In this document: positions 8,069 through 15,348 of the stretch, in pieces
Numbering within the stretch: the stretch's first letter is position 1
How the letters are laid out: every line of letters starts with the position of its first letter
NCBI GenBank assembly: GCA_018066865.1
Contig: JAGPVT010000148.1
Coordinates: forward strand, 1 to 46,046
Length of the DNA: 46,046 nucleotides
Source of the DNA: Marinobacter sp.
GTDB lineage: Bacteria > Pseudomonadota > Gammaproteobacteria > Pseudomonadales > Oleiphilaceae
Reading direction: 5' to 3'
Made by a program: the position numbers and the translations under genes
Notes under the pieces: model-generated
What the model saw: only the letters and a program-made list of their open reading frames with translations
Told to the model about the DNA's origin: nothing
Database searches by the model: none

Positions 8069-8175
8069 CGTTGGCTCCGGTTAGTTCCGGCAATGTACGT
8101 GAATTCAAAGAGATTGGTTCTGACTGAGTGCCAAAACAGGATGATTAGCAAAACGCGCGCACAAAACATGAAGGA

Positions 8176-8278
8176 AGTACCGGGGAGATTCTCCCCGGAC
8201 CGTGCATTGCCAGGGATGGCAATGCCGAGCCCCCATGGATGGGTTTACGGCGTGTCCGGGGAGGATCTCCCCGGTACT
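8176..8278. repeat. Large hairpin repeat, copy 1 (25-bp stem, 53-nt loop)
   Basis: Two 25-nt arms (8176-8200 and 8254-8278) are reverse complements at 24 of 25 positions and enclose a 53-nt loop (8201-8253). Each arm is itself nearly palindromic: CCGGGGAGA-T-TCTCCCCGG on the left, and CCGGGGAG with CTCCCCGG on the right. The loop contains its own hairpin, ATTGCC-AGGGAT-GGCAAT (8206-8223). The loop aligns with the reverse complement of the loop of copy 2 at 34 of 53 positions without gaps. The element sits 40 bp after the rho stop and 107 bp before the ubiD start, so it would also form in the rho-ubiD transcript. Confidence 0.85.
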
Positions 8279-8317
8279 GCCCGCCCCACAATCCCAGAGG
8301 CGCCAAGACTCTGACTC

Positions 8318-9580
8318 TTAACGGCGCTTCATAGACTGGAAGAACTCGTCGTTGGTCTTGGTATCTTTCAGCTTATCCAGCAAGAACTCGATGGCTGCAG
8401 TGTCGTCGTCCATGGAATGCAGCAATTTACGCAGGATCCACACACGCTGGATATCCGCTTCGCTCATCAGCAGGTCTTCGCGGCGCGTGCCGGAGCTGCG
8501 AATGTTGATGGCCGGGTAAACACGCTTCTCGGCAATCTTGCGGTCCAGGTGAATTTCCATGTTACCTGTGCCCTTGAACTCCTCATAGATCACTTCGTCC
8601 ATTTTGGAACCCGTGTTCACCAGAGCCGTTGCAAGAATCGTAAGGCTTCCGCCCTCTTCTACGTTACGAGCCGCACCGAAGAAGCGCTTGGGCTTTTCCA
8701 GAGCGTGGGCATCTACACCACCGGTCAACACTTTGCCCGAGGATGGAATAACCGTATTGTAGGCACGAGCCAGACGGGTGATGGAATCCAGCAGGATAAC
8801 CACGTCTTTTTTGTGTTCTACCAGCCGCTTGGCCTTCTCGATGACCATTTCAGCTACCTGAACGTGACGCGCAGGTGGCTCATCAAAAGTGGAAGCAATC
8901 ACTTCGCCGCGCACGGTACGCTGCATTTCTGTTACTTCTTCCGGGCGCTCGTCAATCAGCAGCACAATGATGTGGCATTCCGGATGATTGCGAGTAATAG
9001 ACTGGGCAATACTCTGCATCAGGATGGTTTTACCGGCCTTGGGCGGCGATACAATCAAACCACGCTGGCCTTTGCCGATAGGCGCAACCAGATCCAACAC
9101 GCGGGAAGACAAGTCTTCGGTGCTGCCGTTACCGGTTTCAAGCGCCATGCGCTCATCAGGGAACAGCGGCGTGAGGTTTTCAAACAGGATCTTGTTACGG
9201 GCGTTGTCCGGTTTGTCAAAGTTGATCTCAGCGACTTTCAACAGGGCAAAGTAGCGCTCACCGTCTTTGGGCGGGCGAATCTTGCCGGCAACGGTATCAC
9301 CGGTGCGCAAGTTGAAGCGACGGATCTGGCTGGGGGAGACGTAAATATCGTCTGGCCCGGCCAGGTAGGATGCATCGGCAGAGCGGAGAAAGCCGAAGCC
9401 GTCCTGCAGGATCTCCAGTACGCCGTCGCCATAAATGTCTTCGCCGCCTTTCGCATGTTTCTTCAGAATGGTGAAGATAACATCCTGTTTACGCGAACGT
9501 GCCAGGTTATCGAGACCCATCTCTTGCGCGATATCGAGCAATTCGGGCATGGAGTTCTGCTTGAGTTCAGTAAGATTCAT
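8318..9580 (-). CDS. rho: Transcription termination factor Rho
   Basis: Rho is the hexameric RNA helicase that ends transcription at Rho-dependent sites. At 420 residues it is the usual size. The N-terminal Rho_N segment ([19 protein letters not shown]) and cold-shock-like RNA-binding region ([17 protein letters not shown]) come first. The ATPase follows, with P-loop PPKAGKT, Walker B-like [16 protein letters not shown] and the Q/R-loop region [20 protein letters not shown]. The C-terminus contains [17 protein letters not shown]. It precedes ubiD on the same strand, and trxA, its usual upstream neighbour, lies 3.7 kb away beyond the molybdenum cofactor genes. Confidence 0.98.
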
Positions 9581-9943
9581 AGGTTATTAGATTTTCAGGA
9601 ATGGAATTAAACGGAAGTTGGGATGACAGGGGTGCCCCTGAACAGATTCATTGACTGGTTGTTAAAACAGGTGCTGGCCAGATGAAGCAACCGGCGTAGA
9701 CAAAATCCGGAATATAAATATTGAAGCCAGTAGAGTGGGTACAACCGTTCGTAGGGCAAGAGCGATAATCTGCTACCTTACCCGCCAATGTCAAGTGCAG
9801 GGGCCAAATAAACGTCAATCTTGCTCCCGGAAAGCCCGTCAGCAAGGCCCGGCGCCTCCCCCTGATGGGTTACTCCCTTCCATTCCCGGCCGCTGATGGG
9901 GATACTTACAGACAACATTTTTGTTATGTCCGGAGCGCCACCC
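9581..9943. other. Divergent intergenic region between rho and moaB
   Basis: This 363-bp region must hold the promoters for rho (-) and the moaB operon (+). Small open frames cross it but lack start signals and similarity, so I treat it as non-coding. The right half (about 9815-9912) looks structured and is listed separately. I see no convincing -35/-10 pair on either strand. Confidence 0.6.
9815..9912 (+). promoter_or_regulatory. Candidate structured leader, possibly molybdenum cofactor (Moco) RNA motif
   Basis: Upstream of moaB the plus strand has, in order, a stem CTTGCT/AGCAAG (9820-9825 with 9841-9846) enclosing CCCGGAAAGCCC, then GCGCCTCCC, then CTGATGGG. From memory, the Moco RNA motif that precedes molybdopterin genes in many proteobacteria has CCGGAA, GCCTCCC and GATGGG in this order, and the gene position fits. 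I have not confirmed the paired P1 stem. The same bases can also fold on the minus strand. A covariance-model search is needed, so confidence is low. Confidence 0.35.
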
Positions 9944-10516
9944 ATGAGCAGTGAACAAACCAACGAAATCAAACCTCTCAATATCGCGATTCTCACGATC
10001 TCCGATACCCGCGGGCCTGATGAAGACTCCTCCGGCCAGTTTCTTGAAGACAGCGTTGTGGAGGCCGGGCATCGATTAATTTCGCGGCGCATACTACCCG
10101 ATGATGTTTATCTGGTGCGCGCAGCAATATCATCCTGGATTGCAGAACCGGATGTTCATGTGGTTATCAGTACCGGCGGCACCGGTTTTTATGAGCGCGA
10201 CAGCACGCCGGAAGCCGTTGCACCGCTGCTGGACAAGACCATTGAAGGCTTTGGTGAGGAGTTCCGCCGCCAGTCAGCCTCGGAGATAGGGACATCCACT
10301 ATTCAGTCCAGAGCTTTCGGCGGCCTTGCCAATCATACGGCTATTTTCTGCCTGCCGGGCTCTACGGGAGCCTGTCGGACCGGCTGGAACGGCATTCTGA
10401 ACACCCAGCTCGACAGCCGTCACGGCCCCTGCAACTTCTCGGCCCTGGTTGGCCGCAAGCCGGAGCGCGCCGTTGAGCGCCTTCAGCAGGTTATTGGGAA
10501 ACGCGCTACACGCTAA
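9944..10516 (+). CDS. moaB: MoaB/MogA-type molybdopterin adenylyltransferase
   Basis: The protein (190 residues from the ATG at 9944, preceded by GGAG at 8-nt spacing) has the MoCF_biosynth fold. Visible motifs are [19 protein letters not shown], the [17 protein letters not shown] phosphate loop, [17 protein letters not shown] and a C-terminal GPCNFSAL segment. The family activates molybdopterin by adenylylation before molybdate insertion by MoeA. In-frame ATGs at 9926 and 9896 are alternatives. It heads the moaB-moeA-moaD-moaE run, all on the plus strand with small gaps. moaA and moaC, needed for the first step, are not in the window. Confidence 0.92.
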
Positions 10517-10538
10517 TTCTGAACACGGAGAGAAAACC

Positions 10539-11750
10539 ATGGCCGCCAATCTGACGCCGGTTGAAGAGGCTATTGACCACTTGCTGGGCAAAGCTCCGGC
10601 GATTACAGAAAATGAGCTTTTGCCGCTCACCGAGAGCTTGGGGCGGGTTCTGGCACAGGATTATCAGGTTCCAGCGGATGTACCGCCTGCGGATAACAGT
10701 GCCGTGGATGGCTACGCTTTGCACGCCGAGGATTACATTCCCGGCCAGGCACTATCGGTATCTGCCCGGATCCCGGCCGGCTCTGCTCCCAGCCCGCTAA
10801 AACCCGGTTCGGCTGCTCGTATCTTCACCGGCTCAGAGGTTCCGGCCGGTGCCAACACGGTCATCATGCAGGAACGGATTGAGGTTACGGAAGGCGGCAT
10901 ACTCATTAACACAGAGGTAAAGGCCGACCAGAATATCCGCAGGCGTGGGCAGGATCTTGCTCAGGGCAGTCTAGCCCTGAAAAAGGGTACGAAAATCCGG
11001 TCTCAGGAGATGGGCCTTCTTGCTTCCATGGGGGTAGCCGAGGTTGCGGTCGTGAAAAAGCTGCGGGTCGCGATTCTGTCAACCGGCGATGAGCTGGTCG
11101 ACCCCGGAAATCCGTTGGGGCCAGGCCAGATCTATAACACTAACCGCTTCACCCTGCTTGGCCTGCTAGCGGAAGCGGGTTGTGACGTGGTGCTGTGTGA
11201 AACTTTGCGGGACACTCGCTCTGTTACCCGGGAAACGCTGGAGCGTGCGGCGGCACAGGCGGATCTGATTATCACCAGCGGGGGTGTCTCCGTGGGGGAG
11301 GAAGATCACGTGCGGGCGGTGCTGGAAGAATCCGGCGAGCTTTCACTCTGGCGCATGGCAAGCAAGCCTGGTAAACCCTTGGCGTTTGGATCGATCAAGG
11401 GCACGCCGGTATTGGGCTTGCCCGGCAACCCGGCTGCGGTGCTGGTCACTTTTCTGATTGTGGGTATGCCTTACATACGCACCTGCCAGGGGCAGCTGCA
11501 GATTCACCCTGTAGGCCAACGGGTGCCCGCGACGTTTACGGTTACTTCACCCTCTGTGCGCAGGGAATTTGTCCGCGCGCGTACCGAGTCTATTAATGGC
11601 GACACACGGGTCAGCGCTTACCCGAATCAGAGTTCTGGCGTATTGAGTTCTGCCTGCTGGGCCGACGGCCTGGCAGTGATTCCAGAGCATGCCACGATTG
11701 CAGAAGGTGACCTGCTGACCTACTACCCATTCACTGAGTTACTGAGCTGA
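10539..11750 (+). CDS. moeA: MoeA, molybdopterin molybdenumtransferase
   Basis: MoeA inserts molybdate into adenylylated molybdopterin. The ATG at 10539 follows a GGAG about 8 nt upstream and gives 403 residues, matching the family; the open frame extends upstream without support. Motifs seen are VPADVPPADNSAVDGYAL (domain I/III), RIFTGSEVPAGANTVIMQE, GLLASMGVAEVAVVKK, the MoCF signature TSGGVSVGEEDHV and ASKPGKPLAFG followed by GLPGNPAAVLVTF. It starts 22 bp after moaB and ends 1 nt before moaD. Confidence 0.96.
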   Translation: MAANLTPVEEAIDHLLGKAPAITENELLPLTESLGRVLAQDYQVPADVPPADNSAVDGYALHAEDYIPGQALSVSARIPAGSAPSPLKPGSAARIFTGSEVPAGANTVIMQERIEVTEGGILINTEVKADQNIRRRGQDLAQGSLALKKGTKIRSQEMGLLASMGVAEVAVVKKLRVAILSTGDELVDPGNPLGPGQIYNTNRFTLLGLLAEAGCDVVLCETLRDTRSVTRETLERAAAQADLIITSGGVSVGEEDHVRAVLEESGELSLWRMASKPGKPLAFGSIKGTPVLGLPGNPAAVLVTFLIVGMPYIRTCQGQLQIHPVGQRVPATFTVTSPSVRREFVRARTESINGDTRVSAYPNQSSGVLSSACWADGLAVIPEHATIAEGDLLTYYPFTELLS

Positions 11751-11751
11751 T

Positions 11752-12012
11752 ATGACTAGCCAGATCCTGACCGTTCGTTTTTTTGCCCGGCTCCGGGAGG
11801 AGTTGGGTACGGAACAACTCACGCTGCCGGCAGACAAGGATCAGACCGCTGGTGATCTGCTTGCCGCTCTTGCCAGCCGCGGTGGCCCTTGGGCACAGCT
11901 GCAGGGCAGCCAACCGGTGATGATTGCGATCAATCAGGCTATGGCAAAGCCTGCCACGCCAGTGAAGGCTGGCGATGAAGTGGCATTTTTCCCGCCGGTA
12001 ACAGGGGGTTAA
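11752..12012 (+). CDS. moaD: MoaD, molybdopterin synthase small subunit
   Basis: This 86-residue ubiquitin-like sulphur carrier ends in the obligatory Gly-Gly (PPVTGG), the site of thiocarboxylation. It supplies sulphur to MoaE for conversion of cyclic pyranopterin monophosphate to molybdopterin. The N-terminal strand TVRFFARLREELG and the AGDEVAFFPPVTGG tail are typical. The ATG lies 1 nt past the moeA stop, and moaE begins 1 nt after its own stop, giving a coupled trio. Confidence 0.94.
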   Translation: MTSQILTVRFFARLREELGTEQLTLPADKDQTAGDLLAALASRGGPWAQLQGSQPVMIAINQAMAKPATPVKAGDEVAFFPPVTGG

Positions 12013-12013
12013 T

Positions 12014-12463
12014 ATGATCAGTATTCAGTCTGAGGATTTTGATTCGGGCGCTGAGTATGCGGCGTTGCGGGACAGCGGTGCCGGTACGGGGGCTATTGCT
12101 ACGTTTACTGGGCTGGTGCGGGATAGTGGCGATACGCAGGGCGTGTCGGGGTTGTTTTTGGAGCATTACCCGGGGATGACGGAGCAGGTGATTGCAGGAC
12201 TTATTGAGGAGGCTTCGCAGCGCTGGGATGTGCGTAAGGCGCGGGTGATTCATCGGGTTGGCAGGTTGTTGCTGCAGGAACAGATTGTTTTTGTGGGCGT
12301 TTGCAGTGCCCATCGGGGCGATGCGTTTGCGGCTTGCGAGTTCATTATGGATGCTTTGAAGACGTCTGCGCCGTTTTGGAAGAAGGAGCTTTCTGAAAGC
12401 GGGGAGCATTGGGTGGAGCAGAAGGCTTCTGATGTTGCCCGGGGTGATGCCTGGGAGAAATAG
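12014..12463 (+). CDS. moaE: MoaE, molybdopterin synthase catalytic subunit
   Basis: At 149 residues this has the normal length. Motifs are GAIATFTGLVRD, FLEHYPGMTE, RVIHRVGRLLLQEQIVFVGV, the SAHRGDAFAACEFIMD stretch with the conserved HR, and the catalytic-lysine region APFWKKE. It forms a heterotetramer with MoaD. The nucleotide sequence is noticeably richer in G and T than moeA just upstream (67% and 73% in two sampled 60-nt lines). The large hairpin copy 2 begins 22 nt after its stop. Confidence 0.95.
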   Translation: MISIQSEDFDSGAEYAALRDSGAGTGAIATFTGLVRDSGDTQGVSGLFLEHYPGMTEQVIAGLIEEASQRWDVRKARVIHRVGRLLLQEQIVFVGVCSAHRGDAFAACEFIMDALKTSAPFWKKELSESGEHWVEQKASDVARGDAWEK

Positions 12464-12484
12464 ATTTAGTGCTTGCCGATCGGT

Positions 12485-12591
12485 CTTTGGCGCGGGCCGT
12501 CTTGCCGAAAAACGCTGTGGATACGTCCGTGTACGCTTGGCTCCGCCATCCATGGCTCCGCACATTTTCGGCAAGACGGCCCGCGCCAAAG
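12485..12591. repeat. Large hairpin repeat, copy 2 (27-bp perfect stem, 53-nt loop)
   Basis: Arms 12485-12511 and 12565-12591 are perfect reverse complements (27 of 27) and enclose a 53-nt loop (12512-12564). The arms begin CTTTGGCGCGGGCCGTC and share no sequence with the arms of copy 1. The loop, read on the minus strand, aligns gap-free with the copy 1 loop at 34 of 53 positions; both contain GCCA-GGATGGC at the same offset and end GCGT. It fills the gap between convergent moaE and mobA and may act as a two-way terminator, though no T-tract follows. Confidence 0.88.
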
Positions 12592-13821: not shown

Positions 13822-15348
13822 GTGACGGCCACCTCTTCTGCCGAAAATGCCCCTGCTCCACCGGATATGCTGGCAGCCATTGATATGGGCTTAAACAGTT
13901 TTCATATGGTTGTGGCGCGACTGGTGCACGGCGAAATTCGCACCATGGAAAAAATGGGCGAAAAGGTGCAGCTCGGCGATGGTCTTGATTCCGACAACTG
14001 CCTGACCGAAGAGGCCCAGGAGCGCGGGCTTGACTGCTTGCGCCGTTTTGCCCAGCGCCTTAACGGCACGCCACCGGAGGGTGTCCAGATTGTGGGCACC
14101 AACGCCCTGAGGGTCGCGCGCAATGCCAGCCAGTTCATAGCCAGAGCGGAGGAAGTCCTGGGCTACCCGGTGGAGGTCATTGCCGGGCGCGAGGAAGCGC
14201 GTCTGATCTACCTGGGCGTTTCGCACACTTTGTCTGATGATGCAGGGCGCCGTCTGGTAATCGATATCGGTGGCGGCAGTACGGAGTTGATTATCGGCCA
14301 ACGCTTTGAGCCTCAGGAGCTCGAGAGCCTACACATGGGCTGCGTCTCTTTCCGGAACCGGTATTTTTCTGATGGCCGGATTACCCGCAAACAGATGGAC
14401 AATGCGATTACTCACGCGGAGCAGGAGCTCCTGAGTATCCGCAAGCGTTTTCGGTCGGTAGGCTGGCAAAGTGCCGTCGGCGCGTCTGGCTCAATCAAGG
14501 CCATAAGCATTGTGCTGGCGACACTAAAGATAACCGATGGCACCATTTCCTGGAGTGCCATGGAAGAGTTGCGCCGACGGCTGGTGGATATGGGCAGTGT
14601 GGAGAAGTTGGGCGAGCTGGGAATACGACCGGATCGACAGAATATTTTCCCGGCCGGTTTCGCCATCCTTATGGGAGCCTTTCAGTCCCTGAACATACAG
14701 GATATGACCTTCGCCGATGGCGCACTCAGGGAAGGCCTTCTGTATGGCATTGCCGGGCGGATTCAACATGAGGATGTGCGTGAACGCAGTATCTCGGCGC
14801 TTCAGGAGCGGTACCACGCAGATCAGAGTCAGGGCACTACAGTTGAGGCAACTGCGATTGCAGCGTGGGAACAGATTGCCGCCGCCTGGGGCCTCGATAC
14901 GGTTCACGATGAAGAGGTTTTGCGCTGGGCTTGCCAGTTGCACGAAATTGGCCTGACCATTTCGCACAGCCAGTATCACAAGCACGGAGCCTACCTGTTG
15001 CGCTATTCCGACATGGCCGGTTTTACCCAACAGGCCCAACAGGAACTGGCAATCCTGGTACGGGGCCATCGGCGCAAATTCACTGCGTCGATCTTTGATG
15101 GCGTCGATCCCGGTGATCTGAAACGTTTGCGACACCTCTGCATACTGGTGCGCCTTGCCGTGCTGATCCAGCACTCCCGCAACCTGGAACCGCCACCGGC
15201 CTTCACGCTTCAGCCACGGGAAAATGGCCTTTTACTGATCTTTCCGGAAGGTTGGTTCGATGAGCGCCCGCTGACGTTTGCAGATTTGAGGAACGAGCAG
15301 GATTATCTGGCCAAGCAAGACTTTGTACTTGAGCTAGCGGGAGGCTGA
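13822..15348 (+). CDS. ppx: Exopolyphosphatase (Ppx/GppA family)
   Basis: Ppx releases phosphate from polyphosphate ends. The 508 residues match the long Ppx/GppA form with an HD-like C-terminal region. Motifs of the actin-like ATPase fold are AAIDMGLNSFHMVVARLVHG, VQIVGTNALRVARN, IAGREEARLIYLG and VIDIGGGSTELIIG. The C-terminal part includes WACQLHEIGLTISHSQYHKHGAYLL, with the histidines typical of the helical domain. The start is GTG at 13822; an ATG at 13867 (MLAAIDMG) is an alternative that would shorten the N-terminus by 15 residues. Confidence 0.95.
   Translation: MTATSSAENAPAPPDMLAAIDMGLNSFHMVVARLVHGEIRTMEKMGEKVQLGDGLDSDNCLTEEAQERGLDCLRRFAQRLNGTPPEGVQIVGTNALRVARNASQFIARAEEVLGYPVEVIAGREEARLIYLGVSHTLSDDAGRRLVIDIGGGSTELIIGQRFEPQELESLHMGCVSFRNRYFSDGRITRKQMDNAITHAEQELLSIRKRFRSVGWQSAVGASGSIKAISIVLATLKITDGTISWSAMEELRRRLVDMGSVEKLGELGIRPDRQNIFPAGFAILMGAFQSLNIQDMTFADGALREGLLYGIAGRIQHEDVRERSISALQERYHADQSQGTTVEATAIAAWEQIAAAWGLDTVHDEEVLRWACQLHEIGLTISHSQYHKHGAYLLRYSDMAGFTQQAQQELAILVRGHRRKFTASIFDGVDPGDLKRLRHLCILVRLAVLIQHSRNLEPPPAFTLQPRENGLLLIFPEGWFDERPLTFADLRNEQDYLAKQDFVLELAGG

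What the first reader, a model, noticed from the sequence alone, without database searches (positions are those of the whole stretch)
8176..12591. A family of giant hairpins with unrelated stems but a conserved 53-nt loop
Copy 1 (8176-8278) and copy 2 (12485-12591) have stems of 25 bp (24 paired) and 27 bp (all paired) whose sequences are unrelated. Both loops are exactly 53 nt. The loop of copy 2, reverse-complemented, aligns with copy 1 without gaps at 34 of 53 positions (hand count), including GCCAxGGATGGC and the terminal GCGT. Transposon ends would keep the arms and vary the centre; here the reverse holds. Conserved centre plus freely changing yet perfectly paired arms points to selection or an unusual copying mechanism that rebuilds complementarity, for example template switching, or to a structured RNA. 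Both copies sit just after gene 3' ends.
Basis: seen in the sequence. Interest (0 to 1): 0.72.

Follow-up and report, generated by a model that had tools for sequence, protein, structure and literature searches.

The report
Giant hairpins with twin GGA loops
Marinobacter and scattered other gammaproteobacteria carry up to about 150 copies per genome of a giant hairpin whose two arms change sequence yet stay paired, while its head keeps two small GGA loops that likely bind the global regulatory protein CsrA; it matters because it would be a large set of regulator-binding RNA sites that a standard RNA-family scan did not flag where tested.

Summary
In detail: two hairpins with 25- and 27-bp arms, 53-nt loops, 34 of 53 loop positions identical. 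They belong to a large family. A covariance model finds 46 copies in the window's own genome, 3-149 in 15 congeners and matches in 48 of 274 genomes of the class, own included. The head is a three-way junction with two C-ANGGAN-G hexaloops 20-22 nt apart: the consensus recorded for the CsrA homologue RsmE. The arms (about 28 bp) keep pairing through double changes. G.U pairs outnumber A.C mismatches 80 to 22, so pairing is selected on the GGA strand, as expected for an RNA. The architecture matches Rfam's TwoAYGGAY RNA; 1 of 20 related loci passes that cut-off, the window copies do not. Orientation to flanking genes is random; close pairs are head-to-head in 21 of 22 cases. The presence/absence cases examined look like losses, not fresh insertions. 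CsrA binding and transcription are inferred, not shown.

The parts
8176..8278 (+). Copy 1, whole element (GGA strand is +; antisense to rho)
   Evidence: R1 match 8187-8267 + 87.1 bits
8176..8200 (+). Copy 1, 5' arm (P1)
8254..8278 (+). Copy 1, 3' arm (P1'), 24 WC + 1 G.U
8212..8217 (+). Copy 1, first hexaloop AGGGAT (P2)
8235..8240 (+). Copy 1, second hexaloop ATGGAT (P3)
12485..12591 (-). Copy 2, whole element (GGA strand is -; sense to mobA, antisense to moaE)
   Evidence: R1 match 12498-12578 - 92.3 bits
12565..12591 (-). Copy 2, 5' arm (P1)
12485..12511 (-). Copy 2, 3' arm (P1'), 27 of 27 WC
12548..12553 (-). Copy 2, first hexaloop ATGGAT (P2)
12525..12530 (-). Copy 2, second hexaloop ACGGAC (P3)
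8318..9580 (-). rho, neighbour of copy 1
   Evidence: TIGR00767 710 bits
6581..8068 (-). ubiD-type decarboxylase gene, other neighbour of copy 1
   Evidence: NF008175 956 bits
12014..12463 (+). moaE, neighbour of copy 2
   Evidence: PF02391
12623..13213 (-). mobA, neighbour of copy 2
   Evidence: TIGR02665

Best explanation
The two hairpins are members of one dispersed family whose conserved head carries two ANGGAN hexaloops on paired arms of changing sequence; it is likely transcribed as a structured RNA of the TwoAYGGAY kind, and the two loops would be bound together by one CsrA/RsmA dimer. Supported by sequence and covariation: P1 arms of about 28 bp, two short helices P2 and P3 closing the hexaloops, the strand bias of wobble pairs, the copy number, the random orientation to genes and the head-to-head pairs. 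Inferred: that the GGA strand is made as RNA at most sites, that the arms protect or position the head and need little more than to pair, that CsrA binds the two loops, and that the many copies together buffer free CsrA or mark the 3' ends beside which they sit. Copies are inherited at their sites and, in the cases examined, lost by deletion; how new copies arise is open.
For: Covariation: 24 pairs, 99.6% of 1594 cells paired, 411 double-changed cells, score 0.663 against 0.189 +/- 0.009 shuffled, 0 of 500. Strand: G.U 80 against A.C 22 (59 other mismatches) at stem positions 9-28 in 122 Marinobacter elements, 8 of 130 dropped for too little pairing (p=6e-9 if cells were independent); in the 48 elements of one genome, G008, 20 against 6 (p=0.009); class-wide 68 against 12 (54 other) at positions 9-20 (p=1e-10); same sign in all four gene contexts (27:4, 24:10, 22:2, 6:3; the last not significant). 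Loops: A, G, G, A invariant in 67 of 67 rows in both loops but for one A>G, N positions variable; in overlapping samples found by inverted repeat alone, 49 of 54, 22 of 24 and 12 of 13 long hairpins carry both loops; 0 of 115 other intergenic hexaloop hairpins of G008 have ANGGAN. The two GGA triplets lie 20-22 nt apart in 67 of 67 rows; the review PMC7652899 (passages) gives an ANGGAN hexaloop for RsmE and bridging of sites 10-63 nt apart, best above 18. CsrA is present in the own genome and in 44 of 48 model-positive genomes. TwoAYGGAY kinship. Retention with compensated changes at the rho and moaE sites across the genus.
Against: No expression data were seen; no promoter-like enrichment was found 5' of the elements. 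Orientation to tandem genes is random (56 sense, 45 antisense, p=0.32), odd for a 3'-UTR element. In one search two of five measures do not stand out clearly: pairs with double changes (17; 7 of 500 shuffles reach it) and further pair types (44; 376 of 500 reach it); the upper P2 and basal P3 pairs (5 of 24) have no double change. CsrA is so common (235 of 274) that co-occurrence proves little (36 of 37 against 175 of 198 near-complete genomes, p=0.14). Loop invariance is partly built in, because several samples were collected with GGA-containing patterns, and the class-wide GGA spacing is set by the pattern. Orthologues share changes, so the p-values for wobble pairs are too small. A single-stranded DNA role would give the same wobble bias. 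Head-to-head pairing resembles mobile REP pairs.
Confidence: 0.6

Rival explanations
1. A mobile intergenic DNA repeat (REP/BIME-like): a single-strand transposase would recognise the hairpin in DNA and spread it; the loops are its recognition signal.
For: Many intergenic copies, patchy distribution (48 of 274), random orientation to genes, head-to-head close pairs in 21 of 22 cases, fewer copies than expected between divergent genes in G008 (5 of 56 against 90 of 266, p=9e-5; class-wide 18 of 105 against 61 of 240, p=0.10); PMC6006769 (passages) describes inverted REP pairs.
Against: No GTAG/GTGG 0-2 nt 5' of the stem beyond background (8 of 297 flanks against 2-8 in control windows); stems of about 28 bp and heads of about 53 nt lie outside the REP rules quoted there; no match in viral contigs (exact pattern), plasmids or phages (blastn, 77 bases); orthologous sites keep the structure with compensated changes; the presence/absence cases examined look like deletions. 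A cognate transposase was not searched for.
Confidence: 0.22
2. A plain transcript-end hairpin (terminator or 3' exonuclease block) in which only the arms matter and the head is conserved by common origin.
For: A gene 3' end lies within 55 nt in 20 of 35 sense-tandem, 36 of 38 antisense-tandem and 28 of 33 convergent cases; a C-rich, G-poor stretch follows the 3' arm in Marinobacter, which Rho could use (inference).
Against: No T run after the stem; the terminator scan does not report either copy; the head is more conserved than the arms and its two hexaloops are kept, P3 with covarying closing pairs.
Confidence: 0.12
3. The head is what moves, and arms are rebuilt at each site by copying one arm from the other (template switching).
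For: Within a genome, mean arm identity is 0.45 (n=5) and 0.40 (n=22) for loop distance 0 and 1, as low as the 0.38 (n=97) seen for loops differing at more than 12 positions; in the inner 14 pairs only 6 G.U and 5 mismatches among 926 cells.
Against: Arms at orthologous sites with loop distance 0-2 are 0.75-0.97 identical (7 pairs), and changes there include single and compensated ones; an excess of G.U over A.C is not expected from copying an arm; a constrained head on free arms would give the same paralogue pattern; no clean insertion was found.
Confidence: 0.06

Closest known systems
TwoAYGGAY RNA (Rfam RF01731)
   Same: Two hairpins with ANGGAN-type terminal loops and a variable outer stem; listed from human gut, gamma-Proteobacteria and Clostridiales (PMC2864571, table passage); PMC4333381 (passages) notes strong CsrA-motif matches, tandem G.A pairs in one stem and a poorly conserved outer stem. 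1 of 20 related loci (L209) scores 45.2 against the cut-off of 43; the best copy of the own genome scores 41.
   Different: The elements here have heads of about 53 nt and arms of about 28 bp, score below the cut-off in the own genome, and are missed by the standard scan (0 of 25 R1 matches in 18 loci, L209 among them). Copy numbers up to 149 per genome and head-to-head pairs are described here.
CsrB/RsmY/RsmZ-type CsrA-sequestering sRNAs (and Aln1a-c of Alteromonas, PMC5864184)
   Same: Repeated A(N)GGA motifs in single-stranded regions (PMC5864184, passages).
   Different: Those are one or a few sRNA genes with many sites each (recalled, and the passages); here each element has two sites and a genome can have tens of elements.
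REP/BIME/REPIN repeats
   Same: Intergenic palindromes in many copies, often as inverted pairs (PMC6006769, passages).
   Different: No GT[AG]G tag; arms far longer and not conserved in sequence; a structured head.

Membership tests
TwoAYGGAY RNA (RF01731) | Score at or above the Rfam cut-off of 43 bits | tested here: not met
   Window copy 2 28.5 bits; best of own genome 41 bits. 1 of 20 class relatives, L209, 45.2 bits with permissive filters, not reported by the standard scan.
TwoAYGGAY RNA (RF01731) | Two hairpins with AYGGAY-type hexaloops | tested here: met
   Both window copies; 120 of 122 Marinobacter elements have two C-ANGGAN-G (sample partly chosen by GGA pattern)
TwoAYGGAY RNA (RF01731) | Variable outer stem enclosing both hairpins | tested here: met
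TwoAYGGAY RNA (RF01731) | Tandem G.A pairs in one stem | tested here: inconclusive
   A GGA/GGA internal loop in P2 of many Marinobacter copies by eye; many class relatives have a continuous P2 instead
CsrA/RsmA-binding RNA | ANGGAN in a closed hexaloop, two sites at bridging distance | tested here: met
CsrA/RsmA-binding RNA | Measured binding to CsrA | not testable with these tools
   needs gel shift or CLIP
REP/BIME | GTAG or GTGG 0-2 nt 5' of the hairpin | tested here: not met
   8 of 297 flanks, control windows 2-8
REP/BIME | Inverted close pairs | tested here: met
   21 of 22; with R1 in 18 loci 5 of 6
REP/BIME | A cognate Y1 transposase flanked by the repeats | not tested
   no search for it was made
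Intrinsic terminator | GC hairpin followed by a T run | tested here: not met
   one search lists neither copy (its scan allows loops of 3-8 only); no T run in the sequences

The most novel reading that the evidence does not exclude
A mobile structured-RNA family whose head spreads without its arms: at each new site about 28 bp of local sequence would be turned into a perfect inverted copy around an incoming CsrA-binding head, so that a genome accumulates 50-150 bivalent CsrA sites that together set the free level of the regulator.
Probability: 0.12. Interest if true: 0.88.

Novelty: new variant of a known kind. Interest (0 to 1): 0.6.

Why it matters
If the heads bind CsrA, a marine genus and scattered relatives carry tens of distributed regulator-binding sites per genome, a different design from the one-gene CsrB/RsmZ decoys, and the open question of what TwoAYGGAY RNA does could be tested in culturable hosts. 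The covariance model also points to a large family of intergenic elements in Gammaproteobacteria that the standard Rfam scan did not report in the loci tested.

Tried and rejected
Own promoter 5' of the element: no enrichment of TATAAT-like hexamers in 177 + 120 flanks; an ATATATC motif is seen by eye before a few copies only. Second outer helix from the flanks: hardly above pair-shuffled flanks in Marinobacter (6.48 against 6.32 +/- 0.10, 119 flanks); higher class-wide (7.04 against 6.30 +/- 0.09, 140 flanks), perhaps stems that continue past a bulge. ANGGAN hairpins as a general genome feature: 0 of 115 intergenic and 2 of 399 coding hexaloop hairpins outside elements. Empty-site proof of insertion: presence/absence cases (L011, L016, L029, L036, L032 against G046, G008, G022; L031, L040 against G046) are read as losses, because arm remnants or other genomes with the element are seen in several of them; polarity was not tested on a species tree. 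Carriage on phages or plasmids: no match. Weak Rfam hits to microRNA families reflect long stems and were set aside. In print: the library was searched with TwoAYGGAY (7 papers, 5 listed), CsrA + Marinobacter (40), repeat and GGA-motif terms (41), long inverted repeat + Marinobacter (45), CsrA site spacing (77), structured RNA + CsrA + genus names (80), long hairpin + conserved loop (98), CsrA sponge and repeats (99: none); none of the titles and abstract starts listed describes this family, but the library lacks most subscription journals.

Rows dropped or misread: 5 of 43 twelve-mer hits in the own genome (L020, L028, L038, L042, L045) are unrelated by eye; of the other 38, 30 have stems of 19 bp or more, 2 are cut short by contig ends, 1 is degenerate and 5 show no full stem because of a contig end or an insert. 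In G008, 5 of 63 hits lie inside genes and were left out of the orientation count when it was redone; 2 more lack a neighbour. 34 of 180 class-wide cores gave no paired arms in the script, cores near locus ends included. 8 of 130 elements were dropped before the wobble count. 37 of 146 class-wide elements at a locus edge, 3 inside genes and 1 in a long gap were left out of the orientation count. The first own-G046 ortholog test matched 12 of 39 own loci against 30 G046 loci, one of the 12 (L028) not an element; one search widened it to 43 G046 loci and three chunks. Three rho loci (L078, L086, L092) were turned the wrong way and are taken. In one search the script did not land on the module in about half of the loci.
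Full report
WHAT WAS CHECKED. Both hairpins are in the window as described: copy 1 at 8176-8278, copy 2 at 12485-12591, 53-nt loops, arms of 25 and 27 pairs, 34 of 53 loop positions identical. 40 shuffled windows give nothing comparable. Copy 1 lies between ubiD and rho, antisense to rho; copy 2 lies between the convergent moaE and mobA.

FAMILY. The 12-mer GCCANGGATGGC occurs 43 times in the own genome against 3 for the reversed control, and 9-116 times in each of 24 congeners against 0-7 for the control. Of the 43, 38 belong to the element by eye and 5 do not. The window's genus is inferred to be Marinobacter from the similarity of named Marinobacter contigs to own and congener loci, for example 88.6% over 411 bases.

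ANATOMY. Arms (P1): among 120 distinct elements 3357 pairs include 34 mismatches and 121 G.U; the scoring ends stems at mismatches, so the mismatch share is low by design. Counting from the loop outward in fixed register, Watson-Crick pairing stays above 85% to position 27, is 97 of 122 at position 28, 60 at 29 and near chance (26) at 30, so the stem has a defined length near 28 bp; class-wide the lengths spread more, most between 23 and 33. The arms carry a weak bias rather than free sequence: AAAAC at the loop, then CTTTCC, then G-rich in the 5' arm, with a similar trend class-wide. Head: P2 and P3 each end in C-ANGGAN-G, with a short basal P2 helix that covaries (UA/CG and GC/CG) and a P3 that covaries (CG/UA, AU/CG); 5 of the 24 pairs, in upper P2 and basal P3, show no double change. 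Of the five summary measures, three exceed all 500 shuffles, one is reached by 7 and one by 376. Long hairpins collected by inverted repeat alone carry both loops in 49 of 54, 22 of 24 and 12 of 13 cases, in overlapping samples.

WHICH STRAND, RNA OR DNA. Neutral decay of a perfect inverted repeat gives G.U and A.C equally on either strand. Observed: 80 against 22 in Marinobacter, 20 against 6 in the 48 elements of one genome and 68 against 12 class-wide, on the strand that carries GGA. The bias is present sense (27:4) and antisense (24:10) to flanking genes; five elements at locus edges give 1:3. This favours pairing selected in a single strand of that polarity, most simply an RNA; a single-stranded DNA role would give the same sign.

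PLACE. In 40 stretches of one congener (G008), after leaving out 5 of 63 hits inside genes, the contexts read in element orientation are 22 sense tandem, 14 antisense tandem, 15 convergent and 5 divergent, 2 without a neighbour; class-wide 34, 31, 22 and 18. Divergent regions are avoided in G008 (5 of 56 against 90 of 266, p=9e-5); class-wide the difference is not significant (18 of 105 against 61 of 240, p=0.10). A gene 3' end lies within 55 nt in 20 of 35, 36 of 38 and 28 of 33 Marinobacter cases in sense-tandem, antisense-tandem and convergent contexts. Close pairs (gap up to 400 bases) are arranged 5' end to 5' end in 21 of 22 cases: 13 of 13 in Marinobacter and 8 of 9 elsewhere (p=4e-12 against 25%). 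With R1 on 18 loci, 5 of 6 close neighbours are so arranged; one pair in L263 faces the other way.

EVOLUTION. At the rho site at least 18 of 30 loci have an element antisense to rho, with arms that differ and remain paired and with paired changes in P2. At the moaE site 6 of 30 have it, two of them without mobA downstream. Own and G046 copies of copy 2 differ across much of the middle of the stem on both arms while 50 of 53 loop positions agree; the flanks there are also diverged. Presence/absence cases look like deletions, several leaving arm remnants. Within one genome loop similarity does not predict arm similarity, whereas at orthologous sites close loops go with close arms. This is what a constrained head on less constrained arms would give, and also what a head that moves without arms would give.

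FUNCTION. The loop consensus and spacing match what is recorded for CsrA/RsmE: an ANGGAN hexaloop with variable N, and bridging of two sites 10-63 nt apart, best above 18 (PMC7652899, passages). PMC4333381 (passages) proposed CsrA binding for TwoAYGGAY in Clostridia. CsrA is in the own genome. Expression, binding and any effect on CsrA level are untested. My weights: structured element under pairing selection 0.95; RNA rather than DNA 0.75; kin of TwoAYGGAY 0.8; CsrA binding 0.6; a collective buffer role 0.35.

KNOWN OR NEW. TwoAYGGAY is the closest known family (PMC2864571, passages). The window copies do not reach its cut-off, so they are not filed as members; 1 of 20 relatives found by R1 does reach it. 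The standard Rfam scan of 18 loci reports no TwoAYGGAY where R1 finds 25 elements. I therefore call it a new variant of a known kind. The odds are as first written; the mended counts do not change them.

A SECOND HEAD. A module of about 78 nt with 91% mean column identity sits in the P3 hexaloop of further giant hairpins: 26 hits in 13 of 41 Marinobacter genomes. In 25 of 26 it follows a P2 hairpin, in one of these (L399) without GGA; L403 has a different arrangement. Arms of 20 bp or more were found by script for 20 of 26. It has no Rfam match at E up to 0.1 in the four loci scanned. A model of it matches 12 of 369 class genomes, own included; several non-Marinobacter matches lie beside what look by eye like tRNA ends.

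Noticed in passing
L391-L416; own genome G000:C72:11324-11345 (not in the window): A strongly conserved ~78-nt module (GTGAGGCAAGCGTTTATGAAGC...) inserted at one position of the P3 hexaloop of giant hairpins: 26 hits in 13 of 41 Marinobacter genomes, no Rfam match at E up to 0.1.
   Followed up: partly
L418, L422, L425, L426: Relatives of that module in other families of the class stand next to what look by eye like tRNA ends (no tRNA scan was run).
   Followed up: no
L024 around 992 (G000:C80 about 8192): An ~85-nt insert of three small hairpins inside the P2 hexaloop of one own-genome element; G046 has the plain hexaloop at that site.
   Followed up: partly
L089:2814-2900, L104:2960-3039, L127:4092-4169: A second giant-hairpin type with a 20-22-nt head (TTCAGGGAAACCACGTTTCCC) on the same kind of arms (CCAAAAC/GTTTTGG).
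   Followed up: no
L141:7694-7781, 8970-9062 and 9849-9940: A third giant-hairpin type with head gatgtctgagcgcagcgagttg, three copies in 20 kb.
   Followed up: no
window 8154-8161 and 8299-8304: At the rho site a GCGCGC stretch about 15 nt 5' of the element (13 of 15 correctly oriented congener loci) and a GGCGCC about 20 nt 3' of it could pair.
   Followed up: partly
L009, L023, L026, L030, L033, L035, L039, L040: Eight contigs of the own assembly end inside or beside an element, so the copy count of 46 may be low.
   Followed up: no
L305: One match on a contig labelled Nitratireductor (an alphaproteobacterium by recall); transfer or a binning error.
   Followed up: no
window 14916-15067: Another inverted repeat, 24 bp with mismatches or wobbles and a 104-base loop (no exact run of 10 pairs, absent), inside the exopolyphosphatase-like gene.
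   Followed up: no
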